A stretch of 64,000 bases of DNA from Hydrangea macrophylla (Eukaryota > Streptophyta > Magnoliopsida > Cornales > Hydrangeaceae): contig CM066984.1 in assembly GCA_033977485.1 (NCBI GenBank), forward strand, positions 33,151,501 to 33,215,500, read 5' to 3'. The notes under the pieces were generated by a model that was not told where the DNA came from, did not search any database, and saw only the letters and a list, made by a program, of their open reading frames with translations. How positions within the stretch are numbered: position 1 is the stretch's first letter; each line of letters begins with the position of its first letter. The position numbers and the translations under genes are program-made. Below are positions 1,148 through 45,609 of this stretch, in pieces.

Positions 1148-2635
1148 TGTTGGGTTTGTGCCCTCAAACCATTTATATATGAGACATTGGCATTTTAATA
1201 TATGGATATCAGCTTTACATTTAGTTATGTATGTTTCTTTCATGAGATGATTGTTATCCTTAAGTATCATAGTAAGTAATTCGTGTATGTATGAGATACA
1301 TACAAGTGAGATACGAATTACTATTCTTTCTTACTTAGAATGTGTCACAGTGGATGATGAGACTGGATATCTCATCAGGTTTACACTGTAGCATGATTAA
1401 CTACCATTGGATGGAGTGATTAATCTCAATCACTAGAGTTTAACTCTTAGTTAACATGCTAATGCTTATAGTGCATTGACGGACCTGAGCTTTCCTATTG
1501 ACACTCAAGACTGTCAATCAATCGATAGGAACTCATAACTTGTATAAGGTACGTGTTCTTAATCTTGAGACGATTATGAACACAGAATGTGGATATGGTT
1601 GCTTTGACTTACCAATCAGTGAGGTCTATAGAAGATCAACACCTGGGTATCTTGGGTATGTCATATTCATAGGGTTGTGAACATATATTGTCAAGACAGA
1701 ATCTACCCTCTGTTTCAGAGTAAGCATTCCCTTGAGAATGTCACCAAGTCGATTACTGAGTACTGCAGTCTTGTTGATAAGAGTTATCAACATGTTTGGT
1801 AATCATGAGAGGTGAATGGGACTCAAGGAATACAAGAAGTAATCATGATTCAGGTTGACAGTAACAGTTATCCGACTACCTGAATATGATTACGAATGCT
1901 GAAGGTAGAGGGACATTAGTACAACATACAAGTCTAGTTATCGCTTCGGATATGTTCTTTTGCGTTGGAGTTCAGTTATCGTTTTATGGTGGAGTAAACG
2001 TTAACTGGCCAGTTAGTTAGTTTACTGATCAAAGAGTTTGGTCACGATAATTAACAAACTGGTCTGAGCCAACAATAAAGAGCCTAGGAGGTCCCACTCT
2101 TAGCTCCGCCAGGATACTTGGAAAGACACATGAGGAAGTTGTCAAGACAAGTTCGATCGATTGAAGTATGTTCGATCGATTGAAGTCTTGGTAGTCTCTA
2201 TCGATCGAGAATGGTTCGATCGATCGAAGATCTTCGATCGCTCGAAGTCTAGGTCGGTTCTGGAAATCTATAAATAGGGCAGCTGCGTTCTGGAAAAGGA
2301 GTTCGTCGTTTTAGAACGTCAGAAGCTGGAGAAACTATTTTTAGAGCCCCAAACTTTCTTTTTCCTCTCTATTAGAGATCCCACCATCTCTAGTCTCTCC
2401 GGCAAGCATCCGCAAGAGACATAAGGGTGAAGACAACCTAGTGGAGGCTGCTGCATCACCAAGGAAGAAGAAGAAAATCAGAATTGGGTTCAAGACACTA
2501 AGGTATAACTCTTGTCCCCTCTTGTGCGCATCTATGGAATTAACGAGTAGTAGATCCTGGGCTACCATTAAGTTTTTATAACTTGACTTTTCCGCTGCGC
2601 ATTTAAACTTTTAACTTAAACCGGTTTTTCCATCA
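1148..2635 (+). mobile_element. Copia-family LTR, plus strand
   Basis: A 1.49-kb LTR that starts TGTTGGGTTTGTGCCCTC and ends in CATCA, directly followed by a tRNA-iMet type primer-binding site, so it is a 5' LTR. It is clearly related to the LTRs of the minus-strand copia element at 36021-45609: the start, the conserved GAGACATTGACATTTTAAT-type block and the TATA region all match. A TATA box (TATAAATAG, near 2269) lies just downstream of a cluster of TTCGATCGATCGAA-type palindromes (about 2150-2255). No gag or pol of this copy is left in the window: its leader stops at about 3103, where a gypsy LTR relic begins. No target duplication could be assigned. Confidence 0.85.
2150..2255. repeat. Palindrome cluster (TCGATCGA type) upstream of TATA
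   Basis: About five imperfect copies of a self-complementary motif built on TTCGATCGATCGAA lie within about 110 bp, separated by short non-palindromic spacers. The cluster ends about 15 bp before the TATAAATAG box of the LTR, so it lies in the U3 promoter part. The same cluster is found at the equivalent place in both LTRs of the related element at 36021-45609. Confidence 0.8.
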
Positions 2636-3103
2636 ATTGGTATCAGAGCCACGCTCGTTTGGATCTATAGATGCGTTTTTGGAACACTATTTTGATTGGC
2701 ATGTTGATTTTAGAACTGTTTTCGAAACTGTATCGTCACAGATCTATTTCTGCAGTGTCATCGCAGCAGAGTACAAATCTGTGATTGCATAGGATGCAAG
2801 GCGGGTTCGATCGATCGAACATATTTTGATTGATCGAACATCCTCTGTACTCGAGCGATCGAACAGTCTTCGATCGATCGAAACCTTCTAGTGTTCGATC
2901 GATCGAATTAAGTTAGATCGATCGAGATAGATTCTTTGTCAGGCTCTCTGTTTCACAGTTTTAAGGAGTTTTGAAATTAAAAGCTTTATTTTTAAAGTAT
3001 TATGCAAATTTTTAAAATCATTCTGTGAACAGAAAGTTCAAGCGATTGAACAGAGTTCAATCGATCGAAGGTTCGAGCGATCGAACGGTCTTCGATCGAT
3101 TCT
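2636..3103 (+). mobile_element. Copia leader fragment with second palindrome cluster
   Basis: This sequence matches, in opposite orientation, the leader of the copia element at about 42750-43170, including the segment that begins with GATCTATAGATGC. It carries further TTCGATCGATCGAA-type palindromes (about 2807-2925 and 3040-3100). No coding sequence is left. It breaks off at about 3103, where the GC-rich cassette of a gypsy LTR begins without any recognisable terminus, so a deletion joint is likely. Confidence 0.75.
2638..2650 (+). other. Primer-binding site, tRNA-iMet type
   Basis: TGGTATCAGAGCC follows the LTR end after a 2-bp gap. This is the standard plant retrotransposon PBS complementary to the 3' end of initiator tRNA-Met. 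It fixes the orientation of the adjoining LTR (plus) and shows that 2651-3103 is element leader. Confidence 0.9.
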
Positions 3104-20213: not shown

Positions 20214-20994
20214 TGTAATAACCTGTATTTTCATTTAATTGCATTTTATATTTAAGTTTAATTGTATTGTTTACTTCTATTTTAATTTCAATTCTCATGT
20301 GTTAAAATCTTGTAACATGCCTTATTTCGTAACTGAAATTCTTTTGGGGTCAAAATGTGATTTTATAAAATTTGATGATACCTGTGTTGAATTTCAAATC
20401 TGTATTTCAAAACGGTGAAAGTAAATTCTTTTGATTCAAACTGTATTTTTATGAAACCAGAAAACCATTCCTTTCGTTAAAATGAATTTTTCCGTATTTT
20501 TGTGGTGATCACCGCGCCCCGAAAATACCAGTTTACTTTCAAAAATGTCCGCGCTGTGCTAAACTTCCACAGATTTTGGAAGTGATGTAAAGTGTGATTG
20601 GACATACACTTTATTTCTATTTATGGCAACTCATCATTGGTTAAGGCCTTGTTTGGTTGTTACTGTAACACCCTGTATTTTATTTTCATTAATAAATACT
20701 GCATTTCATTTCCATGAGCATTTGATTTAATTTCTCTTTGTAATATTTATTCCGGGGTCAAACTGTAATTTCCAAAATATTTTCAATGGTTTCAAAATCA
20801 ATATCTATAATTTTGTTCAAACCGGGAATTTAATTCCTACACTAATATAATTTTCTGTATGTTTATTTTAAACCGAAAAATACCAGTTTTTGTTTTAAGC
20901 TGCGTCTATACCGCGACGTGGGTGAGGGAGCATGTGAGCTCAACCTCACCGGGGAATTTCTTGGCCTTGCTTGGAGGCCACAACATGATTTGTT

Positions 20995-21002
20995 TATATA
21001 TA
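20995..21002 (+). promoter_or_regulatory. TATA box in the 5' LTR
   Basis: TATATATA followed by a CT-rich stretch, a common plant arrangement around the start of transcription. If transcription starts about 30 bp downstream, the leader before the Gag-Pol start is about 2.4 kb and includes the GC cassette and hairpin array. Confidence 0.6.
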
Positions 21003-21690
21003 TGCTTACAAACTCTCACTGTGTCTCTCTCAATCTCCCTCAAACTCTCTCAATTCTCTCTATCACTCTCTTGCTCTCTCAAAGACACTAAACACACACA
21101 CAGTTTATATACATATTAATACATATAGATACATACATGGAGACACATACATAGTTATATATATATATATCAATATCAAGAACGGAGGAGCAATTTCTAA
21201 CGACGGATATTACGGCGGATTTCTCTCGGTCTCAATTCTCTGTGTGATTAACTTCTGTGAGTAATTTAAACTCACTCGCCATGTTTATATACGTGTATTT
21301 CAGTATATATAGGTGTGTATATGTGTATATATATGTATTTCACCATTGAAGCTTGAAATTGGAGTTTTACAAAACTCAACCAAAATCAATTCTGTAAATT
21401 GGGAATGGAAGATATTGATCCCGATAAGCTGTGGTTCGAATCCTACACAGTAATTTACTCGTATCGCGACGAACGGTCGATTTAAAGTTTTGACACCCTC
21501 CCTTTAATCGCGAATATTTAGATATATAATCCGTATTAGTTAAAATTGATCGCGTATTCGTAATCTACGCGGAAAACTGAAGAGAACCATATATCACATG
21601 TCCTGGTACGAACAGAATCTGAAACTGGGTAATTTCAGTCCAGAAATTGAAAACAGGGGAGAAGACGAAGAAGATGACATTCTGCAAGAA

Positions 21691-21862
21691 CTCGCGCGCG
21701 CGACCCGCTCGCGCGAGGTTCGCTCGCGCGGCCCGCTCGCGCGAAACTTTCCCCCCCCCCTCGCGCGCGCGATCCGCTCGCGCGACCTGTCCAGCCCCTC
21801 CGCGCGCGCGATCCGCTCGCGCGATCTGCCCTCCCCCTCGCTCGCGCGATCCGCTCGCGCGA
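21691..21862. repeat. GC-rich TCGCGCGA cassette, 5' LTR
   Basis: About 170 bp built from CGCTCGCGCGA words alternating with short C-rich spacers, in a 38-bp rhythm in the last part (GATCTGCCC...CGCTCGCGC). The cores are self-complementary. The 3' LTR has one more 38-bp unit, so the array changes in length even within a very young element. Confidence 0.9.
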
Positions 21863-22160
21863 GGTGGCAGTTTTGGCAGTTTGTGTGATTTTGGTAAGGG
21901 ACTGTTTGGAAAATGTTTTAAAAGTTTTTAAAGAACAGTTTGGCAAAAATATTGTTTTAAAGGCCTACGTTTTAATGATTGTACGAAACAAGAACAACTT
22001 AGGCCAAAATTTACGCTCGTACGATTATTCCGGCTTTGTGATTTATTAATAGTGTTATTTATGAAACATTGACATACATATTAGGGTCGAGGTTACGTCA
22101 ACATGCATGTGTATGAGAAAGTGTGAAAAGAGTAAAGAGTGGCGGTCTGGTGGTGTACGG

Positions 22161-22660
22161 CTTAGATATCGATCGGATAGTTTTCCTGGTATCTAAGGCG
22201 CTCGTTTCGGATATCGATGGATATTATTCCTGGTATCCGAAGCGATGGTATTGAGTACGACTTAGATATCGATCGGATAGTTTTCCTGGTATCTAAGGGG
22301 CTCGTTTCGGATATCGATGGATATTATTCCTGGTATCCGAAGCGATGGTATTGAGTACGACTTAGATATCGATCGGATAGTTTTCCTGGTATCTAAGGCG
22401 CTCGTTTCGGATATCGATGGATATTATTCCTGGTATCCGAAGCGATGGTATTGAGTACGACTTAGATATCGATCGGATAGTTTTCCTGGTATCTAAGGCG
22501 CTCGTTTCGGATATCGATGGATATTATTCCTGGTATCCGAAATGATGGTATTGAGTGTGGCTTAGATATCGATCGGATATTATTCCTGGTATCTGAAGCG
22601 ATAGTTTGGTGTGTTGTTTTGGATATCGATCGGATAGTATTCCTGGTATCTGAGATAATG
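22161..22660 (+). repeat. Hairpin array, 100-bp period, 5' LTR
   Basis: Four 100-bp units start at 22161, 22261, 22361 and 22461, followed by two diverged half-units. Each unit holds two hairpins sharing the core ATATCGAT and TTCCTGGTAT. In type A the stem is CTTAGATA/TATCTAAG; in type B it is TTCGGATA/TATCCGAA. Three of eight stem positions differ between the types and all three are compensated on the opposite side. The array lies inside the predicted transcript, before the AATAAA signal. Confidence 0.92.
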
Positions 22661-23030
22661 GTTTGGTTGTGTTGAGTTTTGTTGAGAGAAAAGAGTCAGA
22701 AAGATGAGATATTACTTTGCTCATGCATGGTCGCTTATTTATTGCTTTCTTTATTATTCCCCCGTGATTATGTTGGAATTGGAACCTTGAATATATTGCT
22801 TTTAAAAGTTAAATTGCACCGTTGTTTATATGCTTATATATACATTGCGAGCACTTGTTTATTTTGCTCACCAGCTTTCATAAGCTGACGGCGTTGATGC
22901 GTCCTGGACTGTATGTCCAGATTTTCAGGGTCAGGAGCAGCCAGGGTATTTTGACTATGCTACTTAGAGTCAGGAGACTTTCCAGGAGGCTGCTTTATAT
23001 TTTCCTATGTCTTTTAAATTTGGGTTTTGT

Positions 23031-23036
23031 AATAAA
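23031..23036 (+). promoter_or_regulatory. AATAAA polyadenylation signal (5' LTR copy)
   Basis: AATAAA in TTTTGTAATAAACTAG. The active copy for transcript ending would be the one in the 3' LTR (30383-30388). Confidence 0.5.
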
Positions 23037-23270
23037 CTAGTTTAGACTTTTGAATAAGGCGTTTTGTGCCTAAGACTATGACTGCTGTAATAGTTTAGTA
23101 AGTTTTTATTTCGGAGCTTATATTTTTATTAGTATCCTTTGCTCTAGAAATGTTGTTAAGTTATTTGTTGCAGGGACAATTGGTCATACTCACTTGTCAC
23201 GACCTACGAGTCCATAAAGGAAATTAAATGCTTTCCTGAATTATGCTACGTCGGGGCGTGACAGGCTTTT

Positions 23271-23283
23271 TGGTATCAGAGCC
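23271..23283 (+). other. Primer-binding site, tRNA-iMet type
   Basis: TGGTATCAGAGCC lies 7 bp after the 5' LTR end and is complementary to the 3' end of initiator tRNA-Met. Confidence 0.93.
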
Positions 23284-23432
23284 AGGTTATGGCTCGACCA
23301 ATTGTCCAGAACACCTAGGATCTCCCGTTAAGATAGAATTAAGATAAGATAGTTCGACTTCGTTCCGTGTTTAGTCGCTGTCTATCGTTTAGAATTTTCT
23401 TTCTTCTCGAGGGGTTGACCAAATTCTGTTGA

Positions 23433-26400
23433 TTGATGGATAGGTACCGTTCTCTCGATCAGATGGCTGGAAGAAATCTCAGGAATCGTCCCGCTATTGA
23501 AGATGCACCCCCGGTAATAGATCCAACCGGAATGTTTGAGGCCTTTGTTAGAAGATTGGAGAGGGTTAGTGATCAGAACGCAATGAACAATAATCAGAAT
23601 GGGAATTACAACGGGAATGGAAGGCAAGCCCACCAGACTGGAGACAAGCTTCTCAAAGAGTTTCGCGCCCTGCGACCTGAGTATTTTGCGGGGACTGATG
23701 AACCCTGGCAAACGGAACAGTGGCTACGTCAGATGGAGCGTATCTTTGAGACCATAGAGTGCACTGATCTGGAGAAGAAGCGTCTGGCTATCTTTCAGCT
23801 GTCTTATGCAGCGGCTGATTGGTGGGATGCAGAAAAGGCGACCATAGGGGAAGAAGCTGCAAGGAGAATGCCGTGGGTGGTGTTCAAGGAAAGGTTTCTT
23901 GAGAAGTATTTCCCCGAAGAAGAGAAGGACAAGAGAGAGAAAGAGTTTATGGAGTTGACTCAAGGGAATCTGACTGTCCGAGAGTACACTACCCGATTTG
24001 AGCGTCTGTCTCGCTTTGCTCCACATATGGTGGACACACCCCAGAGGAAAATCAAGAAGTATCACCGAGGTCTCAACCTGTCTCTCAGACATTTGACTAT
24101 GGGGCATCTGGGCCAGTCATTTGAAGCTCTGGTGAGATTGGCTACGAGGTTAGAGAATGATGGGTGTCAGAATTCGAAGCCGTTTGGAAATCGACCTCCG
24201 CAGAAGGGTTATCCCGGACAGAAACCAGGGTACCCTCAAGGACAGAAAAGGACCTGGGATGGAGGGAAGAAACCTCAACAGACACAAGCAGTTCAGCAGT
24301 ATCAGCCTCTAGCAATAGAAGGGGCCAAAAACAACAACTGCTTCAATTGTGGTAATCCCGGTCACCGAGCTAAGGATTGCAGACAGACTAGGCGTGCTGA
24401 TCGTCCAGGAATTGTGTGCTATAATTGTGGCATGCCAGGTCACATAAGTCCGGAGTGCAAGGCTCCTAGGAAAGGCAACTATGGTCAGCAAGGACAGGCC
24501 CGCCTGAATGCTGTTATTCCCGAGGCTGCTGGTTATGAAGAAACAGGGTATGGAGGAGATGCTTATGAGGAAGGATTGCCTGAGCAACGAGCAGTGGAAG
24601 GTACTCTAACTTTGTTTAACTCTCATGTTAAAGTTTTATTCGACACGGGTGCTACACATTCTTTTATATCTGTTAAGATCGTTCAGAAGTTGGGAATCGT
24701 ACCGCATCGTTTAGAGGAAGCTTTGAGTGCTGTCTCACCCTTAGGGACCACGGTCAAGTTATTACATGTGTGTAAGGATTGTCCTTTACGGTTAGGAGAC
24801 CGTGAACTTTTGGCGAGTTTGGTGGTTCTGTTGATGAAGGAGTTCGATATAATCCTGGGAATGGATTGGCTCGAGAAGAATGATGCGAAGTTGGATTGTG
24901 CAAGGAAGAGGATCACATTTGCGGACAAGGGGAATCGACTCTTCGATTTCCAATGTAACCCTTCGGGTGATATGTTCCTCACTAGATGCCTAGCAAACAT
25001 TGAGGTTGTCAGTGCAGAGGTGACCATATCATCTATACCGGTAATCAAAGAATTCGAGGAAGTATTCCGAGATATTTCAGGATTACCGCCGGAAAGGGAC
25101 ATAGAATTCTGTGTGGAATTGGTGCCAGGTACTCGACCTATAACCAAGGTTCCCTACAGGATGGCCCCTACAGAGTTGTTGGAGCTGAAGGAACAAGTTC
25201 AAGAACTTGAGAAGTTAGGTTTTGTTCGTCCAAGTACTTCACCCTGGGGAGCACCAGTGTTGTTCGTGAAGAAGAAGGATGGGTCAATGCGGCTGTGTAT
25301 TGACTACCGAGAACTGAATAAGGTTACTATCAAGAATAAGTATCCTTTACCTCGGATAGACGATCTGTTTGATCAGTTGCAAGGAGCCACGACCTTTTCT
25401 AAGATTGATCTACGGTCAGGGTATCACCAGTTGAGGGTGCGGAAGGAAGACATACCTAAGACCGCTTTCAGGACGAGATACGGACACTATGAGTTCTTAG
25501 TGATGCCGTTTGGGATGACGAATGCTCCGGCTGTGTTTATGGACTTGATGAACAGAGTATTCAAGCCATACTTAGATCAATTCGTTATTGTCTTTATTGA
25601 TGATATTTTGATCTATTCCAAGTCAGAGGAAGAGCATGAACAACACCTGAGGATCGCGTTGCAGACTCTCAAGGATCACCGCCTGTATGCTAAATTCAGC
25701 AAGTGTGAATTCTGGCTTCAGGAAGTTAAGTTTCTCGGGCATGTGATCTCTCAACAAGGAATCGCAGTTGACTCATCAAAGACCGATGCAGTGGCGAATT
25801 GGACTCGGCCGACCAATGCTACAGAAGTCAGAAGTTTTCTGGGACTAGCTGGTTACTATCGGAGATTTGTAGAAGGTTTCTCCAAGATAGCAGCCCCGTT
25901 AACTGGTTTGACTAAGAAAGATTTGAAGTTTGAATGGACTGATAAGCATGAACGCGCTTTTCTGAAACTGAAAGAGAGATTGACAACAGCGCCAGTGCTT
26001 GCGATACCAAGGGATGGTGAGAAGTTCACTATTTTTAGTGACGCCTCGTATCAAGGATTGGGATGTGTCCTTATGCAAGACGGAAAGGTTATCGCCTATG
26101 GTTCGCGACAGTTGAAGCCGAATGAATTGAACTACCCAACTCATGATTTAGAGCTAGCAGCAGTAGTGTTCGCGCTTAAGACCTGGAGACATTACCTCTA
26201 TGGGGAGAAGTTTGATTTGTTCTCAGACCACAAAAGCCTTAAGTATTTGTTTACTCAGAAGGAGTTGAACATGAGGCAACGTCGGTGGATGGAACTGATC
26301 AAGGACTATGACTTCACATTAGAGTACCACCCTGGTAAGGCTAACGTAGTCGCTGACGCCCTAAGCCGAAAACCTCAAGGAATGATTGCTTCATTGATGT

Positions 26401-27935
26401 TGAGGGAATGGAAAGCCTTGGAGACAATCGCAGAATTTGATATGCAGATTTCTGAAGGAAGTGACGGACATCACTTTGGATGCCTCGTAGTACAACCAAC
26501 CCTTGTGGGTCGAATTATCGAAGCCCAGAAGGGAGATGAAAAGTTTCAAGTATGGTTCGCAAAGATGTTAGAGAAGGACCCGACAGAATGGAAGGTTGGG
26601 GCCGATGGAGGGTACAGATGTCGAGACAGATTGTGTGTGCCAGATTCAGGAGGTTTGAGAAAAGATATTCTCGAAGAAGCACATAAATCGAGACTGACAG
26701 TACACCCAGGAGGAACAAAGATGTATAAGGATTTGAAGAGAAACTTCTGGTGGGAAGGGATGAAGCGAGAAGTAGCCGAGTTTGTGTCTAAATGTTTGAC
26801 TTGTCAACAAGTGAAGGCCGAACATCAGAGACCCTCGGGATTGTTGCAATCCTTACCTGTCCCAGGATGGAAGTGGGAACACATAACTATGGATTTCGTG
26901 GTTGGATTACCCCGGTCACAACAGAATCATGACGCGATTTGGGTAATTGTGGATCGTTTGACGAAGTCTGCACACTTTATCGCGTACAATATGACTTACC
27001 CAGTAGAACGGATGAGTCGAATGTATCTTCAACAAGTAGTGCGACTGCACGGTGCACCTGTGACAATTGTATCGGACCGAGATGCACGCTTTACCTCGGG
27101 ATTTTGGGAAAGTTTGCAGAAGGCTATGGGAACTTCGCTCAAGATGAGTACTGCATTCCATCCTCAGACCGATGGACAGACCGAGCGTGTTAACCAGATT
27201 ATGGAAGATATGCTTAGAGCTTGTGCAATCGACTTTGAAGAGTCTTGGGAGACGCATTTACCGTTGGTTGAATTTGCATATAACAACAGTTATCACTCGA
27301 GTATTGGAATGGCGCCGTTCGAAGCTTTGTACGGACGACCTTGTCGATCTCCGTTGTGTTGGGCTGAAGTGGGAGACACGGAACTTTTGGGACCAGATTT
27401 GGTGAGAGAGACCAATGAGAAGATTTCACTGGTCAAGGAAAGGATGACAACTGCACAGAGTAGACACAAGAGTTATGCGGATCGACGACGAAAGGACTTG
27501 GAGTTCAGTATCGGTGATCACGTACTCCTTAAGGTTTCACCTGTTCGGGGAGTAGTGCGTTTTGGTCAGAAAAGAGGAAAGTTGGCACCTCGTTTCATCG
27601 GACCGTTCGAGGTTTTGGAGCGTGTTGGAAAAGTGGCTTATCGACTCGCGTTGCCACCAAAGATGTCTGGTGTTCATAATGTATTCCATGTCAGTATGTT
27701 AAGGAAATACATACGGGATCCTTCACATGTGGTTAATTTTGATGATATTGAGACGAGTCAGAATGTTGTCTACAAGGATAGACCTGTGAGGATTCTTGAC
27801 CAGAGTATCAAGAGGCTGAGAAGAAGAGACGTTCCTTTGGTTAAGGTTCAGTGGAGGCATCATGACGAGGGAGAGGCGTCGTGGGAGTTAGAGTCGGACA
27901 TGAAGACTAGATACCCCGAGTTGTTTCAGGATTAG
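23433..27935 (+). CDS. Gag-Pol polyprotein of the chromovirus
   Basis: One open frame of 1500 codons from ATG 23433; an in-frame Met a few codons later ([10 protein letters not shown]) could also serve as start. Domains in order: Gag (about residues 70-230, with RPEYFAGT and WWDAEKA blocks); two CCHC knuckles ([14 protein letters not shown] from 303, [14 protein letters not shown] from 329); aspartic protease DTGATHSF at 404; reverse transcriptase (about 545-800) with FIDDIL at 721, Asp723/724 being the catalytic pair; RNase H with FSDAS (Asp870) and SDHKSL; integrase with an HHCC finger from His1084 and catalytic Asp1154, Asp1215 and Glu1251, giving the D,D-35-E spacing; a C-terminal chromodomain-like segment (about 1454-1496). 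No stop or frameshift and all catalytic residues present. The protein would package, reverse-transcribe and integrate the element. Length is normal for a chromovirus. Confidence 0.97.
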
Positions 27936-27966
27936 TTAGCTCAGATTTCGGGGCGAAATCTCTGTT

Positions 27967-27979
27967 AAGGTGGGTAGAG
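27967..27979 (+). other. Polypurine tract
   Basis: AAGGTGGGTAGAG directly precedes the 3' LTR start. It would prime plus-strand DNA synthesis. Confidence 0.85.
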
Positions 27980-29004
27980 TGTAACACCCTGTATTTTATT
28001 TTCATTAATAAATACTGCATTTCATTTCCATGAGCATTTGATTTAATTTCTCTTTGTAATATTTATTCCGGGGTCAAACTGTAATTTCCAAAATATTTTC
28101 AATGGTTTCAAAATCAATATCTATAATTTTGTTCAAACCGGGAATTTAATTCCTACACTAATATAATTTTCTGTATGTTTATTTTAAACCGAAAAATACC
28201 AGTTTTTGTTTTAAGCTGCGTCTATACCGCGACGTGGGTGAGGGAGCATGTGAGCTCAACCTCACCGGGGAATTTCTTGGCCTTGCTTGGAGGCCACAAC
28301 ATGATTTGTTTATATATATGCTTACAAACTCTCACTGTGTCTCTCTCAATCTCCCTCAAACTCTCTCAATTCTCTCTATCACTCTCTTGCTCTCTCAAAG
28401 ACACTAAACACACACACAGTTTATATACATATTAATACATATAGATACATACATGGAGACACATACATAGTTATATATATATATCAATATCAAGAACGGA
28501 GGAGCAATTTCTAACGACGGATATTACGGCGGATTTCTCTCGGTCTCAATTCTCTGTGTGATTAACTTCTGTGAGTAATTTAAACTCACTCGCCATGTTT
28601 ATATACGTGTATTTCAGTATATATAGGTGTGTATATGTGTATATATATGTATTTCACCATTGAAGCTTGAAATTGGAGTTTTACAAAACTCAACCAAAAT
28701 CAATTCTGTAAATTGGGAATGGAAGATATTGATCCCGATAAGCTGTGGTTCGAATCCTACACAGTAATTTACTCGTATCGCGACGAACGGTCGATTTAAA
28801 GTTTTGACACCCTCCCTTTAATCGCGAATATTTAGATATATAATCCGTATTAGTTAAAATTGATCGCGTATTCGTAATCTACGCGGAAAACTGAAGAGAA
28901 CCATATATCACATGTCCTGGTACGAACAGAATCTGAAACTGGGTAATTTCAGTCCAGAAATTGAAAACAGGGGAGAAGACGAAGAAGATGACATTCTGCA
29001 AGAA

Positions 29005-29214
29005 CTCGCGCGCGCGACCCGCTCGCGCGAGGTTCGCTCGCGCGGCCCGCTCGCGCGAAACTTTCCCCCCCCCCTCGCGCGCGCGATCCGCTCGCGCGAC
29101 CTGTCCAGCCCCTCCGCGCGCGCGATCCGCTCGCGCGATCTGCCCTCCCCCTCGCTCGCGCGATCCGCTCGCGCGATCTGCCCTCCCCCTCGCTCGCGCG
29201 ATCCGCTCGCGCGA
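29005..29214. repeat. GC-rich cassette, 3' LTR
   Basis: Same cassette as at 21691-21862 with one additional 38-bp unit near its end. The two LTRs are copied from one template at insertion, so the extra unit arose during reverse transcription or later by slippage or unequal exchange. Confidence 0.9.
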
Positions 29215-29512
29215 GGTGGCAGTTTTGGCAGTTTGTGTGATTTTGGTAAGGGACTGTTTGGAAAATGTTTTAAAAGTTTTTAAAGAACAGTTTGGCAAAA
29301 ATATTGTTTTAAAGGCCTACGTTTTAATGATTGTACGAAACAAGAACAACTTAGGCCAAAATTTACGCTCGTACGATTATTCCGGCTTTGTGATTTATTA
29401 ATAGTGTTATTTATGAAACATTGACATACATATTAGGGTCGAGGTTACGTCAACATGCATGTGTATGAGAAAGTGTGAAAAGAGTAAAGAGTGGCGGTCT
29501 GGTGGTGTACGG

Positions 29513-30012
29513 CTTAGATATCGATCGGATAGTTTTCCTGGTATCTAAGGCGCTCGTTTCGGATATCGATGGATATTATTCCTGGTATCCGAAGCGATGG
29601 TATTGAGTACGACTTAGATATCGATCGGATAGTTTTCCTGGTATCTAAGGGGCTCGTTTCGGATATCGATGGATATTATTCCTGGTATCCGAAGCGATGG
29701 TATTGAGTACGACTTAGATATCGATCGGATAGTTTTCCTGGTATCTAAGGCGCTCGTTTCGGATATCGATGGATATTATTCCTGGTATCCGAAGCGATGG
29801 TATTGAGTACGACTTAGATATCGATCGGATAGTTTTCCTGGTATCTAAGGCGCTCGTTTCGGATATCGATGGATATTATTCCTGGTATCCGAAATGATGG
29901 TATTGAGTGTGGCTTAGATATCGATCGGATATTATTCCTGGTATCTGAAGCGATAGTTTGGTGTGTTGTTTTGGATATCGATCGGATAGTATTCCTGGTA
30001 TCTGAGATAATG
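29513..30012 (+). repeat. Hairpin array, 3' LTR
   Basis: Identical by eye to the array at 22161-22660, including the single G variant (GGGGCTCG) in the second spacing. Confidence 0.92.
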
Positions 30013-31488
30013 GTTTGGTTGTGTTGAGTTTTGTTGAGAGAAAAGAGTCAGAAAGATGAGATATTACTTTGCTCATGCATGGTCGCTTATTTATTGCTTT
30101 CTTTATTATTCCCCCGTGATTATGTTGGAATTGGAACCTTGAATATATTGCTTTTAAAAGTTAAATTGCACCGTTGTTTATATGCTTATATATACATTGC
30201 GAGCACTTGTTTATTTTGCTCACCAGCTTTCATAAGCTGACGGCGTTGATGCGTCCTGGACTGTATGTCCAGATTTTCAGGGTCAGGAGCAGCCAGGGTA
30301 TTTTGACTATGCTACTTAGAGTCAGGAGACTTTCCAGGAGGCTGCTTTATATTTTCCTATGTCTTTTAAATTTGGGTTTTGTAATAAACTAGTTTAGACT
30401 TTTGAATAAGGCGTTTTGTGCCTAAGACTATGACTGCTGTAATAGTTTAGTAAGTTTTTATTTCGGAGCTTATATTTTTATTAGTATCCTTTGCTCTAGA
30501 AATGTGGTTAAGTTATTTGTTGCAGGGACAATTGGTCATACTCACTTGTCACGACCTACGAGTCCATAAAGGAAATTAAATGCTTTCCTGAATTATGCTA
30601 CGTCGGGGCGTGACAGTTACATATGTGAGTGTACATTGCTAGTGCCATAAGCTTGTTTTCCCAAACACTCCAATTTGCCCCCTATTAGTCTACCTGGCCC
30701 TTGGTGAATTGATTTAGTTGATATATCAGTATGTATAACTCTTAATCCTGCTGTGTTTTCCTTTGATTAGTTAGTGTAATCAACTTAGTGTAGAGTAAAG
30801 ATCACAACTCACAACTTGGAGCCCAAGTTGTGGAGTTCTATATAACCCATACACTCATACACACTTACACACTCTCTGCACATTGATATAGAGAGAAAAC
30901 ATAGAGAGTTTCAGAGAGATAAGAGAGAGCTTGAGAGTTTAAGTTTCTGGAGAGAGAAAGCTTAATCACCATTGCCAAGCTTGAAGTTGGGCCTCTTATT
31001 TTCTTATCTTTCTCAACACACACTTCAAATCTCTATCACAGTGAGTATTATTAACTCACTATGAATGTAATTACATGCTTAATTTCTGTGTGTATAGCTT
31101 AGTATGTAAACCTCCATGAAAATTTTTACGTTGATATCCATGGCTTGAAAAATCAAGACTTTTCCAACCTTAATCTAAATCCGTTTTCAGAGATGAATGT
31201 CAAAGTTTATGATATATAGAGTTTACGGTTTGAGTTTTGGAGCCCAATTGATTCATATGAAGAAGTATATAAGAAATCAAATTTTAACACTTTTTAATTT
31301 TTTATAAAATTTGTGAGCTACGGTTTGAATTATGTTAAATTGATCGTAGATTATTAATCCTCGTCGAAAACCGGAGAGATCCATATATTACTTGCCATAT
31401 TTAATTCGGAATTGCAAAATGGGTCAAAAAGACCCCATTAAACTGAAACAGAGCAGTTTCTACGAAGAAGACGGAGCCTCAGCAATTA

Positions 31489-31800
31489 ATCGCGCCACGA
31501 TCGCGCGAGCGAGGATCGCGCGAGCGGCCCACGCGAGCGACCCCTCGCGCGAGCGGCCCGCGCGCGCGAGGCATGCGTCTCTAGGCAGACAGAAAAGTTT
31601 ATATATATAAAATGAAATTTAGGCAGGTCGCGCGAGCGAGAGTCGCGCGAGAGACCTTTCGCGCGAACGATCTGCGCGTGCGACCTTGGCTTTTTCAGGC
31701 AGACAGAAAAGTTTATTTATTAAATGAAATTAGTCATATCGCGCGAGCGGACCGCGCGAGCGACCTTTCGCGCGAGCGGCCCGCGCGCGCGATCTGGCAG
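31489..31800. repeat. GC-rich cassette of the solo LTR
   Basis: Three blocks of TCGCGCGAGCG words (about 31490-31575, 31626-31685, 31738-31795) separated by a repeated spacer containing AGGCAGACAGAAAAGTTTAT. The core is in the opposite sense to that of the intact chromovirus (GCGCGAGCG against CGCTCGCGC), which matters little because the core is self-complementary. Confidence 0.85.
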
Positions 31801-32177: not shown

Positions 32178-32210
32178 GAGGGTATCTTTGAAATGCGACG
32201 GTGGCAAATT

Positions 32211-32472
32211 TGGACACTCCCTGACGCCCATGGAAGCGTTAAAGTGTGTGAAGCCGAACTTGGACATTCCCTGGCACCCATGGTAGTGCTAAAGTGTGGC
32301 CTACGGACACTCCCTGATACCCGAGTCTGGATACTGCGTGAGGTTGCTCTGGTATTTGCATGGCGGTTTAGGTATTCAAAGTGTGAGGCAATGGACACTC
32401 CCTGGTACCCCGGACCAAAGTGTGAGGCAAACTGGACACTCCCTGGCGCCCCGTTGCTAAAGTGTGGCTATC
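32211..32472 (+). repeat. Hairpin array of the solo LTR with covarying stems
   Basis: Five copies of a module GGACACTCCCTG...AAAGTGTG. The outer CACT/AGTG pairing is nearly constant. The inner stems differ but stay paired: TGACGC/GCGTTA, TGGCAC/GTGCTA, TGATAC/GTATTCA (with a long loop), TGGT/ACCA and TGGC/GCTA. The sequence is unrelated to the array of the chromovirus LTR, but the position within the LTR is the same. Confidence 0.85.
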
Positions 32473-33156
32473 TTAGTGTTTCAAAGATACCAGGAGTAAG
32501 ATAGTGGGTTGTTGTGTGTGTCTAGAGAAAAGAGTCGGCAAGATGAGTGTGGTGCATTGTCTCATACACAATTATATGTTTCAGGAAAGATCGACTTTTA
32601 ATGTATTCCTTGTTGTTTTTATAAAATGAATTCTTTCTGTGGTCAAAAGATTATTTTTGCAAAATTGAAATGGAAAAAGGTAAATGAGTATGTTTTACAT
32701 TTAAAGTTATGTTTTTAATACTCACCAGCTTCTTGAAGCTGACAACGTTGATGCGTCCTGGACATTCGTGTTCAGGCTTTTCAGGTTATGATCAGGAAGG
32801 ACCTTATGACTACGCTAACTGAGAATGGCTGCCTTTGGAATGAGAAAACTGTTTATTGATTATATGCTTTAAGTTATATGTTTTAAGTTTCAAACTATTT
32901 GTTTTATAAGGATGACTGTAATAGACACTAAGTTATTGTTTTGTTTTTAAGGCGGTCTGTGCCTTTAGATGACCCCGTGTTGTAATATGTAATAAGTTAG
33001 AAAAATTTTATAAGCCTTGATTGCTCTGCTCTGATTATTATGTTTGTTGTTCGACGTTTGGGACGGAATCGATCCTTCAAACTGTCGCGACCTACGGGTC
33101 CATAAAGGAAATTAAACGCTTTCCTTATTTATGCTACGTCGGGGCATGACAGATGG

Positions 33157-43171: not shown

Positions 43172-45609
43172 TGAAGGAAAAAAAAAAACAGGTTTAAAAA
43201 TTATTTTTAAATGCGCAGCGAAAAGATTAAGTTACAAAAACTTATTGGTAGCCCAGATCTACCACTCGTTAATTCTATAGATGCATATAAGAAGGGGGAA
43301 AGAATTATACCTCACGGTCTTGAACCCAATTCTGAAATCTCTAACTTCCAGCAGCCTCCAATAGATGGTCTTCACTCTTATGACTCCTATGGATACTCCC
43401 GGAGAGACTAGCTAGGGTTGGTGGGAACCCTAATAGAGAGGATAGAGTAGGTTTGGGAACCCTAAAATAGTTTCTGTAGCTTCTGGTATAATAAAATGAT
43501 GAACTCTAATTTCTAGACGTAGCTGCCTTATTTATAGATTCCCAGAACCGACCTTACGTTCAATCGATTGAAGTGGCTTCGATCGATTGAACCTTCAATC
43601 GATGGAACCATGTTCGATCGATCGAAGCTGCCAAGACTTCAATCGATCGAGACTCTTCGATCGATCGAACTCGTCATGACAAAATCCTCTTGTGCCTTTC
43701 CAAGCATCGTAGCAGAGCTAAGAGTGGGACCTCCTAGTTTCTCAATTGTTGGATCCGATCAGTTGTTAATTCCCATGACCAAACTCTTTGATCAACAAAC
43801 TAACCAGCTAGTCAGTTAACATTTACTCTACTATAAAATGATAACTGAACTCCAACGCAAAAGAATATATTTGAAGTGATAACTAAACTTGTATGGTATA
43901 CTAATGTCCCTCTACCATTAGCATTTGTAATCATATTCAGGTAGTCGGATAACTGTTACTATCAACCTGAATCATGATTACTTCTTGTATTCCTTGAGTC
44001 CCATTCACCACTCATGATTACCAAACATGTTGATAACTACTTATCAACAAGACTATAGTTCTCAGTAATCAACTTGGTGGCATTCTCAAGGTAATGCTTA
44101 CTCTTTAACAGAGGGTAGATTCTATCTTGACAATATATGTTCACAATCCTGTGAACATGATATATCCAAGATACCCAGGTGTTGATTTTTAAGACCTTAC
44201 TGATTGGTAAGTCAAAGCAGCCATATCTAGGGATGATCAAAATAACCGAGCAACCGAATCGATCGGCCAAAACCGACCGATTTGGACTGTTTTGGTCAGT
44301 GTTGTTGAAATTTGGTCGGCGCTCGGTGTGGTATTGTTGAGAAACTGACTTCTCGGTTCGGCAGCAAATTTCAGTGCATAGCCGACCGAGACCGACCGAA
44401 TACTATATTTATTATACATATATTATTATAAAATCCATCAGTCTGTGTTTTCATTCTAGATATTTTGATTAGTATAATATATAATATATATTGTACATAT
44501 CTCTTTTTCCAAGAAACTTCTCTATCAAGACTAAGAGGTCCTGAATTATCAAAAATAAAAAAAGATGAAGAAAAAAAGTCTATACTTCAATCTGGGATTC
44601 TGGGTTTGGAAGATGTCTCTCTATCTCAAATCATCTTGAAGCAGTTTCTTTATTCTATGTGCATCGTCTCCACATCGTCGCTCCATCGATGCTCAGGCAA
44701 AACAACGGAAGTCAGGTACTTTGCTTCTCTCTTGATCTTTCTTTCTTTTTCTCCTCCCTCCCTGACTTTCAATATCACACTCTCTGTTTTTCAGTATATG
44801 TTTCTCTCTCTAAATCAAAACCCTATATACATGTTTCTCTCTCTCAATCAAAACCCCAACCTACCTTAATCAATTCATACAGAGTGCTAGCCTAAACATG
44901 TTTGTCTATTAAGCTGATTTGGGGAATTTAGGGTTTCTGAAACTTTGATTTTTTGGTATTGGAAGAACATTCAGCCTAAATGCCCAAACCGATCGGTTAA
45001 ACCGAAACCAATTGCCGACAATCTGGTCAGTTGCATACATGCTTGATTTTCATACGGTCGGCATCGGTGCTGGCTGAACATGCACCGAACAGTTCGGTTC
45101 GGTGGGGTAGAGGCGCAAAAAGCCGACCGTACCGACCGATTAACAGCCCTAGCTATATCCACAGTCTGTGTTCATAATCGTCTCAAGATTGAGAACACGT
45201 ACCTTGCACAAGTTATGAGTCCCTATTGACCGTTGATAGCCTTAAGTGTCAATAGGAAAGCTAAGGTTCGTCAATGCACTATAAGCACTAGCATATTAAA
45301 CTAAGAGTTAAACTCTAGTGATTGAGATTCATCACTCCATCCAGTGATAGTTAATCATGCTATAGTGTAAACCTGATGAGATATCCAGTTTCATCATCCA
45401 CTGCGGCAAATTCTAAGCATCAATGAATAGTAATTCGTAACTCGCTTGTTATGTATCTCATACACACATGAATTACTTATAATGATACTTAAGGATTAAC
45501 AATTATCTCATGAAAGAAATATACACAATGAAATGTAAAGCTGATATCCATATATTAAAATGTCAATGTCTCATACATAAAGTAATGGTTTGAGGGCACA
45601 AATCCAACA
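43172..45609 (-). mobile_element. 5' LTR of the minus-strand copia element
   Basis: On the minus strand it starts TGTTGGATTTGTGCCCTC at 45609 and ends CCTTCA at 43172. Palindromic cluster at about 43560-43670; TATAAATAG next to it (about 43535). It is interrupted by a hAT-like element at 44228-45151. Confidence 0.92.
44228..45151. mobile_element. Non-autonomous hAT-like transposon
   Basis: 924 bp inserted in the copia LTR. The ends are imperfect inverted repeats, TAGGGATGATCAA on the left and TAGGGCTGTTAAT (complement) on the right, with ACCGACCGA-rich subterminal sequence at both ends. The 8-bp flanks GCCATATC (44220-44227) and GCTATATC (45152-45159) differ by one transition, fitting the 8-bp TSD of the hAT superfamily. 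The other LTR lacks the insert and shows a single copy of the site. There is no transposase frame. The middle (about 44480-44900) is less repeat-like and includes a possible splice donor after CGGAAGTCAG. Confidence 0.85.

What the first reader, a model, noticed from the sequence alone, without database searches (positions are those of the whole stretch)
22161..22660. Covarying hairpin array in the leader of an intact chromovirus
Seen directly: eight regular hairpins (four 100-bp units, two per unit) plus two diverged half-units. Stem A is CTTAGATA/TATCTAAG and stem B is TTCGGATA/TATCCGAA. Positions 1, 3 and 4 of the stem differ and every change is matched on the other side, while the core (ATATCGAT, TTCCTGGTAT) stays the same. 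Inference: paired changes in tandem copies point to selection on RNA (or cruciform) structure. The array lies between TATA and AATAAA in the long leader. Possible roles are packaging, dimerisation, translation control or protein binding. I know of no named element of this kind.
Basis: partly seen in the sequence, partly recalled or inferred. Interest (0 to 1): 0.88.

Follow-up and report, generated by a model that had tools for sequence, protein, structure and literature searches.

The report
Conserved RNA hairpin array in retrotransposon
The end repeats of a jumping gene, likely from a plant, carry ten repeats predicted to form hairpins, and relatives in other families carry arrays with a similar predicted shape; in the element's RNA they likely make a row of docking sites for a protein, which would give a first handle on how such elements mark their RNA for packaging.

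Summary
Ten predicted hairpins (22161-22655) lie in both LTRs of an intact Ty3/gypsy chromovirus (20664-30615). Copies from the same 2.22-Gb genome share a sequence-variable stem, a bulge and a 3-bp cap, with 5-18 hairpins recognised per array. A second LTR in the window (family 2) and a third family carry composite hairpins whose tips are predicted to have the same bulge-and-cap shape with another cap (GGA/UCC versus GAG/CUC), so the arrays look like parts of one ancestral RNA element. In 20 of 20 family-2 copies chosen by downstream sequence the array is 96-99% identical, sequence upstream 58-87%. Stem changes private to one LTR give G-U and A-C equally (32:30); states shared by both LTRs favour G-U (102:41), as RNA-level selection predicts. 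Against: my tree-aware covariation test found 0 of 1081 pairs significant, and the family-2 array is not unusually stable overall. A TATA box kept in two families predicts that the array is in R, at both RNA ends. Most likely it is a multivalent protein-binding RNA, perhaps for Gag packaging; function is untested. No Rfam family matches; six literature searches listed no description.

The parts
20659..20663 (+). target-site duplication GTTAC, left copy (right copy 30616-30620)
   Evidence: sequence
20664..23263 (+). 5' LTR, 2600 bp, TG...CA
   Evidence: direct repeat of 27980-30615; one substitution and 40 gap columns between the LTRs
20995..21003 (+). TATA box of the LTR promoter (predicted), followed by a CT-rich stretch
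   Evidence: sequence; TATAWA in the aligned stretch of 16 of 19 family-1 loci (one of them, L025, in unrelated sequence) and 13 of 16 family-2 loci
22155..22674 (+). hairpin array of the 5' LTR, ten hairpins, order ABABABABCD
22161..22197 (+). hairpin A1 (repeated at +100, +200, +300)
22206..22241 (+). hairpin B1 (repeated at +100, +200, +300)
22560..22599 (+). hairpin C, stem closed with a bulged G on the 3' side
22617..22655 (+). hairpin D, stem kept through G-U pairs
22835..22842 (+). second TATA-like run, kept in families 1 and 3, absent from family 2
   Evidence: TATAWA in 29 of 30 family-1 loci, 0 of 29 family-2 loci in which the probe was found
22867..22920 (+). conserved downstream block with two small hairpins (CAGCTT/AAGCTG, CTGGAC/GTCCAG)
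   Evidence: 746 exact matches of a pattern on its first part in the own genome, reversed control 0
23031..23036 (+). AATAAA, predicted poly(A) signal
   Evidence: sequence; role recalled
23271..23283 (+). predicted primer binding site (TGGTATCAGAGCC, initiator-Met tRNA type, recalled motif)
   Evidence: sequence
23436..27935 (+). gag-pol ORF, open throughout: gag, CCHC knuckles, protease, RT, RNase H, integrase, weak chromodomain
   Evidence: searched in four pieces
27980..30615 (+). 3' LTR, 2636 bp, with the same array at 29507-30026
32180..32495 (+). family-2 array in a second, diverged LTR (3' end 33151; 5' end not fixed): five GGACAYTCCC...AGTGT hairpins at 32212-32247, 32262-32297, 32305-32384 (composite), 32393-32423, 32434-32465
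32180..32195 (+). 5' strand of the long-range closing stem of the family-2 array (partner 32476-32491)
   Evidence: both strands found (up to 3 edits) in 20 of 20 family-2 copies; altered but still pairing in 5 of 6 family-3 loci

Best explanation
The LTRs of this chromovirus carry a tandem array of repeats that is predicted to fold into hairpins in the element's sense RNA and likely works as a multivalent docking platform for an RNA-binding protein, most likely the element's own Gag, which would select the genomic RNA for packaging. Shown by sequence: the array, its place in both LTRs, related arrays at the same place in two other LTR families, and, for family 2, conservation above the LTR upstream of it. 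Predicted: the common fold. Inferred: transcription from the upstream TATA box, so that the array sits in R and stands at both ends of the RNA; RNA-level selection, from the excess of G-U over A-C among states shared by both LTRs. Untested: any protein partner. Each hairpin would present the conserved bulge, cap and loop on an exchangeable stem; tandem copies would raise avidity, so copy number can vary.
For: Same fold in 10 of 10 hairpins, z -9.4. 60 hairpins picked for diversity out of 144: 93.9% of 960 stem cells paired against 89.7% shuffled and at most 50.4% when slid; cells changed on both sides 57 against 23.6, covariation score 0 of 500 shuffles as high. 21 LTR pairs, 186 hairpin pairs: private one-sided changes G-U 32, A-C 30, other 9; shared non-Watson-Crick states G-U 102, A-C 41, other 15, Fisher p 0.009 (paired against not paired), and p 1e-5 after setting aside, post hoc, two A-C states of bulged-G classes. 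Family 2: array 96-99% identical, upstream 58-87%, in 20 of 20 copies not chosen by the array. Short hairpins of families 2 and 3: 41 distinct, 95.4% paired against 92.4% shuffled, covariation score 0 of 500. Composite units whose tip has the bulge-and-cap shape in 7 of 11 family-3 and 10 of 16 family-2 units. 47 of 50 LTR pieces picked by a downstream motif hold an array. CCHC knuckles in Gag. Plus-strand windows z -5.2 to -6.4, minus -2.7 to -3.6.
Against: A tree-aware covariation test of my own making found 0 of 1081 column pairs significant; the best pair of the structure had E 12.8. In the shuffle tests the number of pairs changed on both sides is not above chance (6 against 5.5; 3 against 2.8). 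On the tree, G-U versus A-C does not differ significantly between inner and tip branches (p 0.40), though keep:break leans the right way (70.6:53.2 inner, 88.8:118.5 tip). Counting each position and pair type once, the shared/private contrast is not significant (p 0.23, 8 LTR pairs). The family-2 array as a whole is no more stable than shuffles (z +0.79). Recombinant B/E hairpins with one mismatch persist in several elements. The plus strand also folds better in 26 of 28 control stretches, so strand preference is partly base composition. Nothing here tests Gag, and the conserved loop is not G-rich as many nucleocapsid sites are (recalled).
Confidence: 0.45

Rival explanations
1. The array is a structured RNA that acts on translation or RNA handling instead of packaging: it would guide ribosomes past a leader full of start codons, or serve nuclear export or stability of the unspliced RNA through a host protein.
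For: The predicted leader is 2.4 kb with 37 upstream ATGs, 10 of them in the array, so plain scanning to gag looks unlikely. Plant pararetroviruses shunt ribosomes over a structured leader that also carries the packaging signal (PMC5902531, passages).
Against: The predicted fold is a row of separate hairpins, not one large leader hairpin of the shunt type. The leader could be spliced, which was not tested.
Confidence: 0.3
2. DNA-level element: tandem protein-binding sites or cruciforms (enhancer repeats), with palindromic symmetry at the DNA level.
For: Tandem repeats in LTRs often are enhancers (recalled). The core holds palindromes (GATATC, ATCGAT, CGATCG; sequence). DNA folding also beats shuffles (z -4.8).
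Against: Stems differ between hairpins while pairing is kept; a DNA-binding site in the stem would keep its sequence. Shared states favour G-U over A-C. Bulge, cap and closing stem recur in families with altered sequence.
Confidence: 0.12
3. Mutational by-product: template switching in hairpins during reverse transcription or replication copies one arm onto the other, and unequal exchange spreads the result; no selection is needed.
For: Can make compensated changes in one step. Few independent events underlie classes A-E. Repeat number varies between copies.
Against: It predicts perfect Watson-Crick arms and symmetric leftovers; shared leftovers are mostly G-U. It does not explain 96-99% identity of the family-2 array in LTRs that have diverged upstream.
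Confidence: 0.08
4. The array lies in U3: transcription starts at the second TATA run (22835), so the array is present only in the 3' untranslated region of the RNA (compatible with any of the RNA roles above).
For: TATATATA at 22835 is kept in families 1 and 3 and would give a short R before AATAAA, as is common (recalled). The region 22800-22999 is well conserved in family 1 (0.94, array-selected loci).
Against: Family 2 lacks it (0 of 29) but has an array at the same place; the upstream TATA box is found in both families.
Confidence: 0.25

Closest known systems
Packaging and dimerisation signals of Ty1 and Ty3 RNA (PMC4974528, PMC11381356; passages read)
   Same: Cis-acting RNA at the ends of an LTR-retrotransposon genome, thought to be recognised by Gag.
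   Different: No tandem hairpin array appears in the passages read ('tandem' and 'hairpin' occur 0 times in PMC4974528); Ty3 untranslated regions are 193 and 214 nt. Packaging sequences there are not precisely defined.
Retroviral psi stem-loops (search listing with starts of abstracts only)
   Same: Structured RNA near the 5' end bound by Gag.
   Different: A few unique hairpins, not tandem copies of one, and mostly outside the LTR (recalled).
Plant pararetrovirus leader (CaMV, RTBV; PMC5902531, passages)
   Same: Long structured leader that combines translation control with a packaging signal.
   Different: One large stem-loop structure, not a tandem array; no LTRs (recalled).
Retrozymes and Cassandra elements (PMC4918200, PMC7215508, PMC10853983; search listing only)
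   Same: Plant LTRs that carry a structured RNA (hammerhead ribozyme, 5S-like RNA).
   Different: Non-autonomous elements; no ribozyme or 5S match in this LTR.
Tandem repeats of Retand elements (PMC11963269, passages)
   Same: Family-specific tandem arrays in plant Ty3/gypsy elements.
   Different: They lie between pol and the 3' LTR; 'hairpin', 'stem' and 'secondary structure' occur 0 times in its main text.

Membership tests
Ty3/gypsy chromovirus | gag-protease-RT-RNase H-integrase order with a chromodomain at the integrase end | tested here: met
   the chromodomain match is weak (20.5 bits, Pfam's cut-off 25.1)
Ty3/gypsy chromovirus | LTRs with TG...CA ends, 5-bp target duplication, tRNA primer site | tested here: met
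   primer site by recalled motif only
Tekay lineage of plant chromoviruses | place in an RT tree | not tested
   no protein tree was made
Known RNA family (Rfam 15) | score at or above a family's gathering score | tested here: not met
   window 20600-23500: five matches up to E 5, all far below gathering; 4 loci of families 1-3: 0 matches
Gag packaging signal | structured RNA in full-length genomic RNA | tested here: inconclusive
   structure supported with the negative results; transcript ends only predicted
Gag packaging signal | bound by Gag and needed for packaging | not testable with these tools
   needs an experiment
DNA enhancer repeats in U3 | sequence of the site kept, not just pairing | tested here: inconclusive
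   stem sequence varies while pairing is kept, but loop and core sequence are kept, so a DNA site there is not excluded
Structured coding sequence | open reading frame kept across copies | tested here: not met
   hairpin spacings 44, 45, 56, 57, 58, 62 shift the frame between copies

The most novel reading that the evidence does not exclude
A new kind of retroelement RNA module: an ancestral composite hairpin (outer ACACU/AGUGU stem, 3/1 internal loop, variable inner stem, tip with a one-sided bulge and exchangeable 3-bp cap) that different chromovirus families have broken up and multiplied into arrays of tips (family 1), mostly of outer hairpins (family 2) or of both (family 3), each giving a multivalent Gag-loading platform in R at both ends of the genomic RNA.
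Probability: 0.3. Interest if true: 0.88.

Novelty: new variant of a known kind. Interest (0 to 1): 0.72.

Why it matters
[quoted passage not shown] passage). A repeated, conserved, compact hairpin that can be made as a short RNA gives a direct binding test. It also shows that a tandem repeat in an LTR can be a conserved predicted RNA structure and not only an enhancer or satellite seed, and offers a comparative method (stem states shared by both LTRs versus private changes) to find others.

Tried and rejected
Rejected: named RNA family (Rfam); coding array (frame shifts between copies); cruciform or DNA site as main reading (see rivals). Exact-pattern scans of genome contigs and viral contigs gave 0 matches; a 300-aa RT piece found no relative in viral contigs. 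No tRNA in the window (bacterial code).

Negative or weak results kept: tree-aware covariation 0 of 1081 pairs; inner/tip G-U versus A-C p 0.40; pairs changed on both sides not above shuffles; family-2 whole-array fold z +0.79; own-arm pairing rank 2 of 120 for family 2 but only 10 of 720 for six typed family-1 classes; model R1 finds tips of family-3 units only weakly (best E 0.023, 0.066, 0.085 with filters off) and not in the default search. A first pairing table had the register off by one and was replaced. Identity profiles are biased, since those loci were found with the array itself; one search is the version for family 2 chosen by other sequence. Core identities are biased to good matches and are not used. 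Organism: genome size and number of contigs resemble Magnolia biondii (PMC7917104, passages), but the assembly figures differ; host left open.

Rows dropped: 359 of 365 hairpins kept (odd core lengths and a recurrent false match removed); stem positions 1 (invariant U-G) and 10 left out; L072, L073, L101, L102 left out of the trees; LTR pairs L091/L092 (unequal arrays), L101/L102 (family 3) and L109/L110 (15 kb apart) left out; 41 of 57 short units aligned (15 pieces of composite units and one truncated unit left out); one search aligned 19 of 30 family-1 and 16 of 30 family-2 loci.

Full report
WHAT IS THERE. The finding lies in an intact LTR retrotransposon at 20664-30615 with a GTTAC target duplication. 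Its LTRs (20664-23263 and 27980-30615) differ by one substitution and 40 gap columns, most of them one extra unit of a GC-rich repeat, so the insertion is likely young. One ORF of 1500 aa holds gag, zinc knuckles, protease, RT, RNase H, integrase and a weak chromodomain match. The array (22155-22674, copy at 29507-30026) has ten hairpins in the order ABABABABCD. All ten fold alone into the same shape: an 11- to 16-bp stem, a bulge of 2-3 nt on the 5' side only, a 3-bp cap GGA/UCC and a 6-nt loop. The 541-nt RNA folds at -222 kcal/mol, z -9.4; single-stranded DNA z -4.8.

COPIES IN THE SAME GENOME. The window belongs to a 2.22-Gb genome in 19 contigs. A search with the array gave 1860 candidates, of which 40 were scored and 30 loci fetched. 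They held 359 usable hairpins (of 365 matched) with 141 distinct stems. Stem positions 0-9, 11 and 12 pair in 89-100% of distinct stems, several of them through several pair types (position 6: AU 67, GC 39, GU 15, CG 10, UG 2, not paired 8, of 141). Arrays follow the order E-(AB)n-C-D or variants of it; the scripts recognised 8 to 18 hairpins per array in these loci and ten further pieces and as few as 5 in pieces picked later. A recombinant of B and E arms, with one mismatch, recurs in several elements; in three LTRs (L010, L025, L028) an extra T makes that recombinant fully paired.

COVARIATION, FOR AND AGAINST. On 60 hairpins picked for diversity out of 144, 93.9% of 960 cells pair, against 89.7% after shuffling and 36-50% after sliding; cells changed on both sides are 57 against 23.6, and the covariation score beats 500 of 500 shuffles; but the number of pairs changed on both sides (6) is not above shuffles (5.5), and further pair types (23) are reached by 28 of 500. 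The tool warns that relatedness alone can lift the score. A tree-aware test that I wrote in the manner of R-scape (361 distinct hairpins, 696 substitutions) found 0 of 1081 pairs significant: the classes are few, so the within-family covariation rests on few events. Counting changes on that tree, inner branches keep pairing more often than tips (70.6:53.2 versus 88.8:118.5) and repairs are 26.8 versus 4.5, but G-U versus A-C does not differ significantly (p 0.40).

SHARED VERSUS PRIVATE CHANGES. Differences between the two LTRs of one element arose after insertion and should be unselected. I took 21 pairs of LTRs on one strand, 6.1-12.8 kb apart and with matching arrays, as the two LTRs of one element; one pair (L065/L066) is the outer two of a tandem of three. 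In 186 matched hairpin pairs the private one-sided stem changes were 32 between Watson-Crick and G-U, 30 to or from A-C, and 9 others: symmetric, as double-stranded DNA mutation predicts. States shared by both LTRs were G-U 102, A-C 41, other 15 (distinct per element, position and pair); Fisher p 0.009 for paired against not paired, and 1e-5 if, post hoc, the A-C states at positions 8 and 9, which belong to classes that pair in another register with a bulged G, are set aside. Earlier, smaller versions gave p 0.0017 (11 pairs), and 0.004 or, counting each position and pair type once, 0.23 (8 pairs). G-U is a pair only in RNA of the sense strand; its complement is C-A. This points to sense RNA, not to a cruciform.

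A SECOND AND A THIRD FAMILY. A diverged LTR further on in the window (3' end 33151) has another array at the same place, between GTGTGAAAAGAGT and GAGAAAAGAGTC. Four of its five units share one fold..(((((...((((((........)))))).))))), with shorter inner stems in two; the outer stem ACACU/AGUGU encloses inner stems ACGC/GCGU, GCAC/GUGC, GU/AC, GC/GC. In 41 distinct short units of families 2 and 3, 95.4% of cells pair against 92.4% shuffled; three inner pairs change on both sides, no more than in shuffles (2.8), but 20 cells do against 7.8, and the score beats 500 of 500. The fifth unit (32305-32384) is longer. Family 3, met in pieces picked by a downstream motif, explains it: it has units in which the outer hairpin carries a tip CGGAUACUG-AUC-GAG-GUAAU-CUC-UGGUAU-G-CCG. 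That tip has the family-1 shape, with the 3-nt bulge, a cap GAG/CUC instead of GGA/UCC, and the shared UGGUAU. The lowest-energy fold shows this tip in 7 of 11 family-3 and 10 of 16 family-2 composite units; one more (L113) has a GGG/CCC cap and a 5-nt bulge. A long-range stem that closes the family-2 array is found in 20 of 20 copies, and in altered but pairing form in 5 of 6 family-3 loci. The family-1 model finds tips of family 3 only weakly (E 0.02-0.09 with filters off; none in the default search), so the homology rests on shape, place and the shared letters.

CONSERVATION. Twenty family-2 LTRs were chosen by the 592 bp downstream of the array (40 of 5168 candidates listed, 20 taken). In 20 of 20 the array is 95.6-98.8% identical to the window copy, and the 504 bp upstream 58-87%; the selecting stretch itself was 94-96%. 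Profiles made with array-selected loci show the same peak but are biased. Of 50 LTR pieces picked by a downstream motif (of 746 matches; the motif left out the loop letters of the window's own two families, and I picked for variety and as LTR pairs, not at random), 47 hold an array: 40 of family 1, 6 of family 3, 1 of family 2; the other 3 run into other sequence.

WHERE IN THE RNA. A TATA box at about 20995-21003, followed by a CT-rich stretch, is found at the aligned place in 16 of 19 family-1 loci (one in unrelated sequence) and 13 of 16 family-2 loci although the flanks have diverged. A second TATA run at 22835 is kept in families 1 and 3 but absent in 29 of 29 family-2 loci in which the probe was found. 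I therefore place the array in R, between cap and poly(A) site, at both RNA ends; this is a prediction. The leader would be 2.4 kb with 37 ATGs. If the second TATA were used, the array would be in the 3' UTR only and still be transcribed. The sense strand of the arrays folds more stably than the antisense strand in 28 of 28 family-1, 4 of 4 family-3 and 20 of 20 family-2 arrays, but so do 26 of 28 control stretches.

HOW IT MOST LIKELY WORKS. A conserved bulge, cap and loop on exchangeable stems, many times over, is what a protein-binding RNA repeat looks like. In an LTR element with a zinc-knuckle Gag the first candidate partner is Gag, and the first candidate process packaging; this is inference. 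Host factors for translation or export are the main rivals. For Ty1 and Ty3 the packaging sequences are not precisely defined (PMC4974528, passages; PMC11381356, passages).

NOVELTY. No Rfam family matches. Searches of the open-access library listed no paper that, by title and start of abstract, describes such an array; the lists are capped and subscription papers are not held. Structured RNA at retroelement ends is a known kind; a tandem array that shares modules between LTR families is, as far as these searches go, a new variant.

Noticed in passing
window 21693-21862 and 29007-29214; also 31490-31790: A GC-rich palindromic tandem repeat (CGCTCGCGCGA, period about 39) lies upstream of the hairpin array in both LTR families; the two LTRs of the intact element differ by about one unit of it.
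   Followed up: no
window 2200-2246, 2805-2925, 3032-3100, 36417, 43559-43676, 52128: AT-richer palindromes of the type TTCGATCGATCGAAC / TTCAATCGATTGAAC recur across the window, also in L075, and resemble a CpG-decayed version of the GC-rich repeat.
   Followed up: no
window 20970-20979 and 30815-30827: A short inverted repeat precedes the TATA box: CTTGGAGCCCAAG in the window's family-2 LTR, imperfect in its family-1 LTR, with variants such as CTTGGCCACCAAG in other copies.
   Followed up: partly
window 22867-22920: Two small hairpins before the predicted poly(A) signal are seen in both LTRs of the window and in the family-3 pieces; in the 746 matches the first stem is fixed by the pattern and the loop varies.
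   Followed up: partly
window 23194-23263 and 33083-33151: The last 70 bp of the LTRs are 91% alike between families 1 and 2 and begin with TGTCRCGACC and end with GGGGCRTGACA.
   Followed up: no
G000:C9:52399807-52413105 (L065-L067): Three family-1 arrays on one strand spaced 6.39 kb apart, with equal hairpin spacing: apparently a tandem LTR-element-LTR-element-LTR structure.
   Followed up: partly
G000:C1:105413705-105423121: Four matches of the LTR motif spaced 3.13 kb apart on one strand, a tandem array of something that includes this part of the LTR.
   Followed up: no
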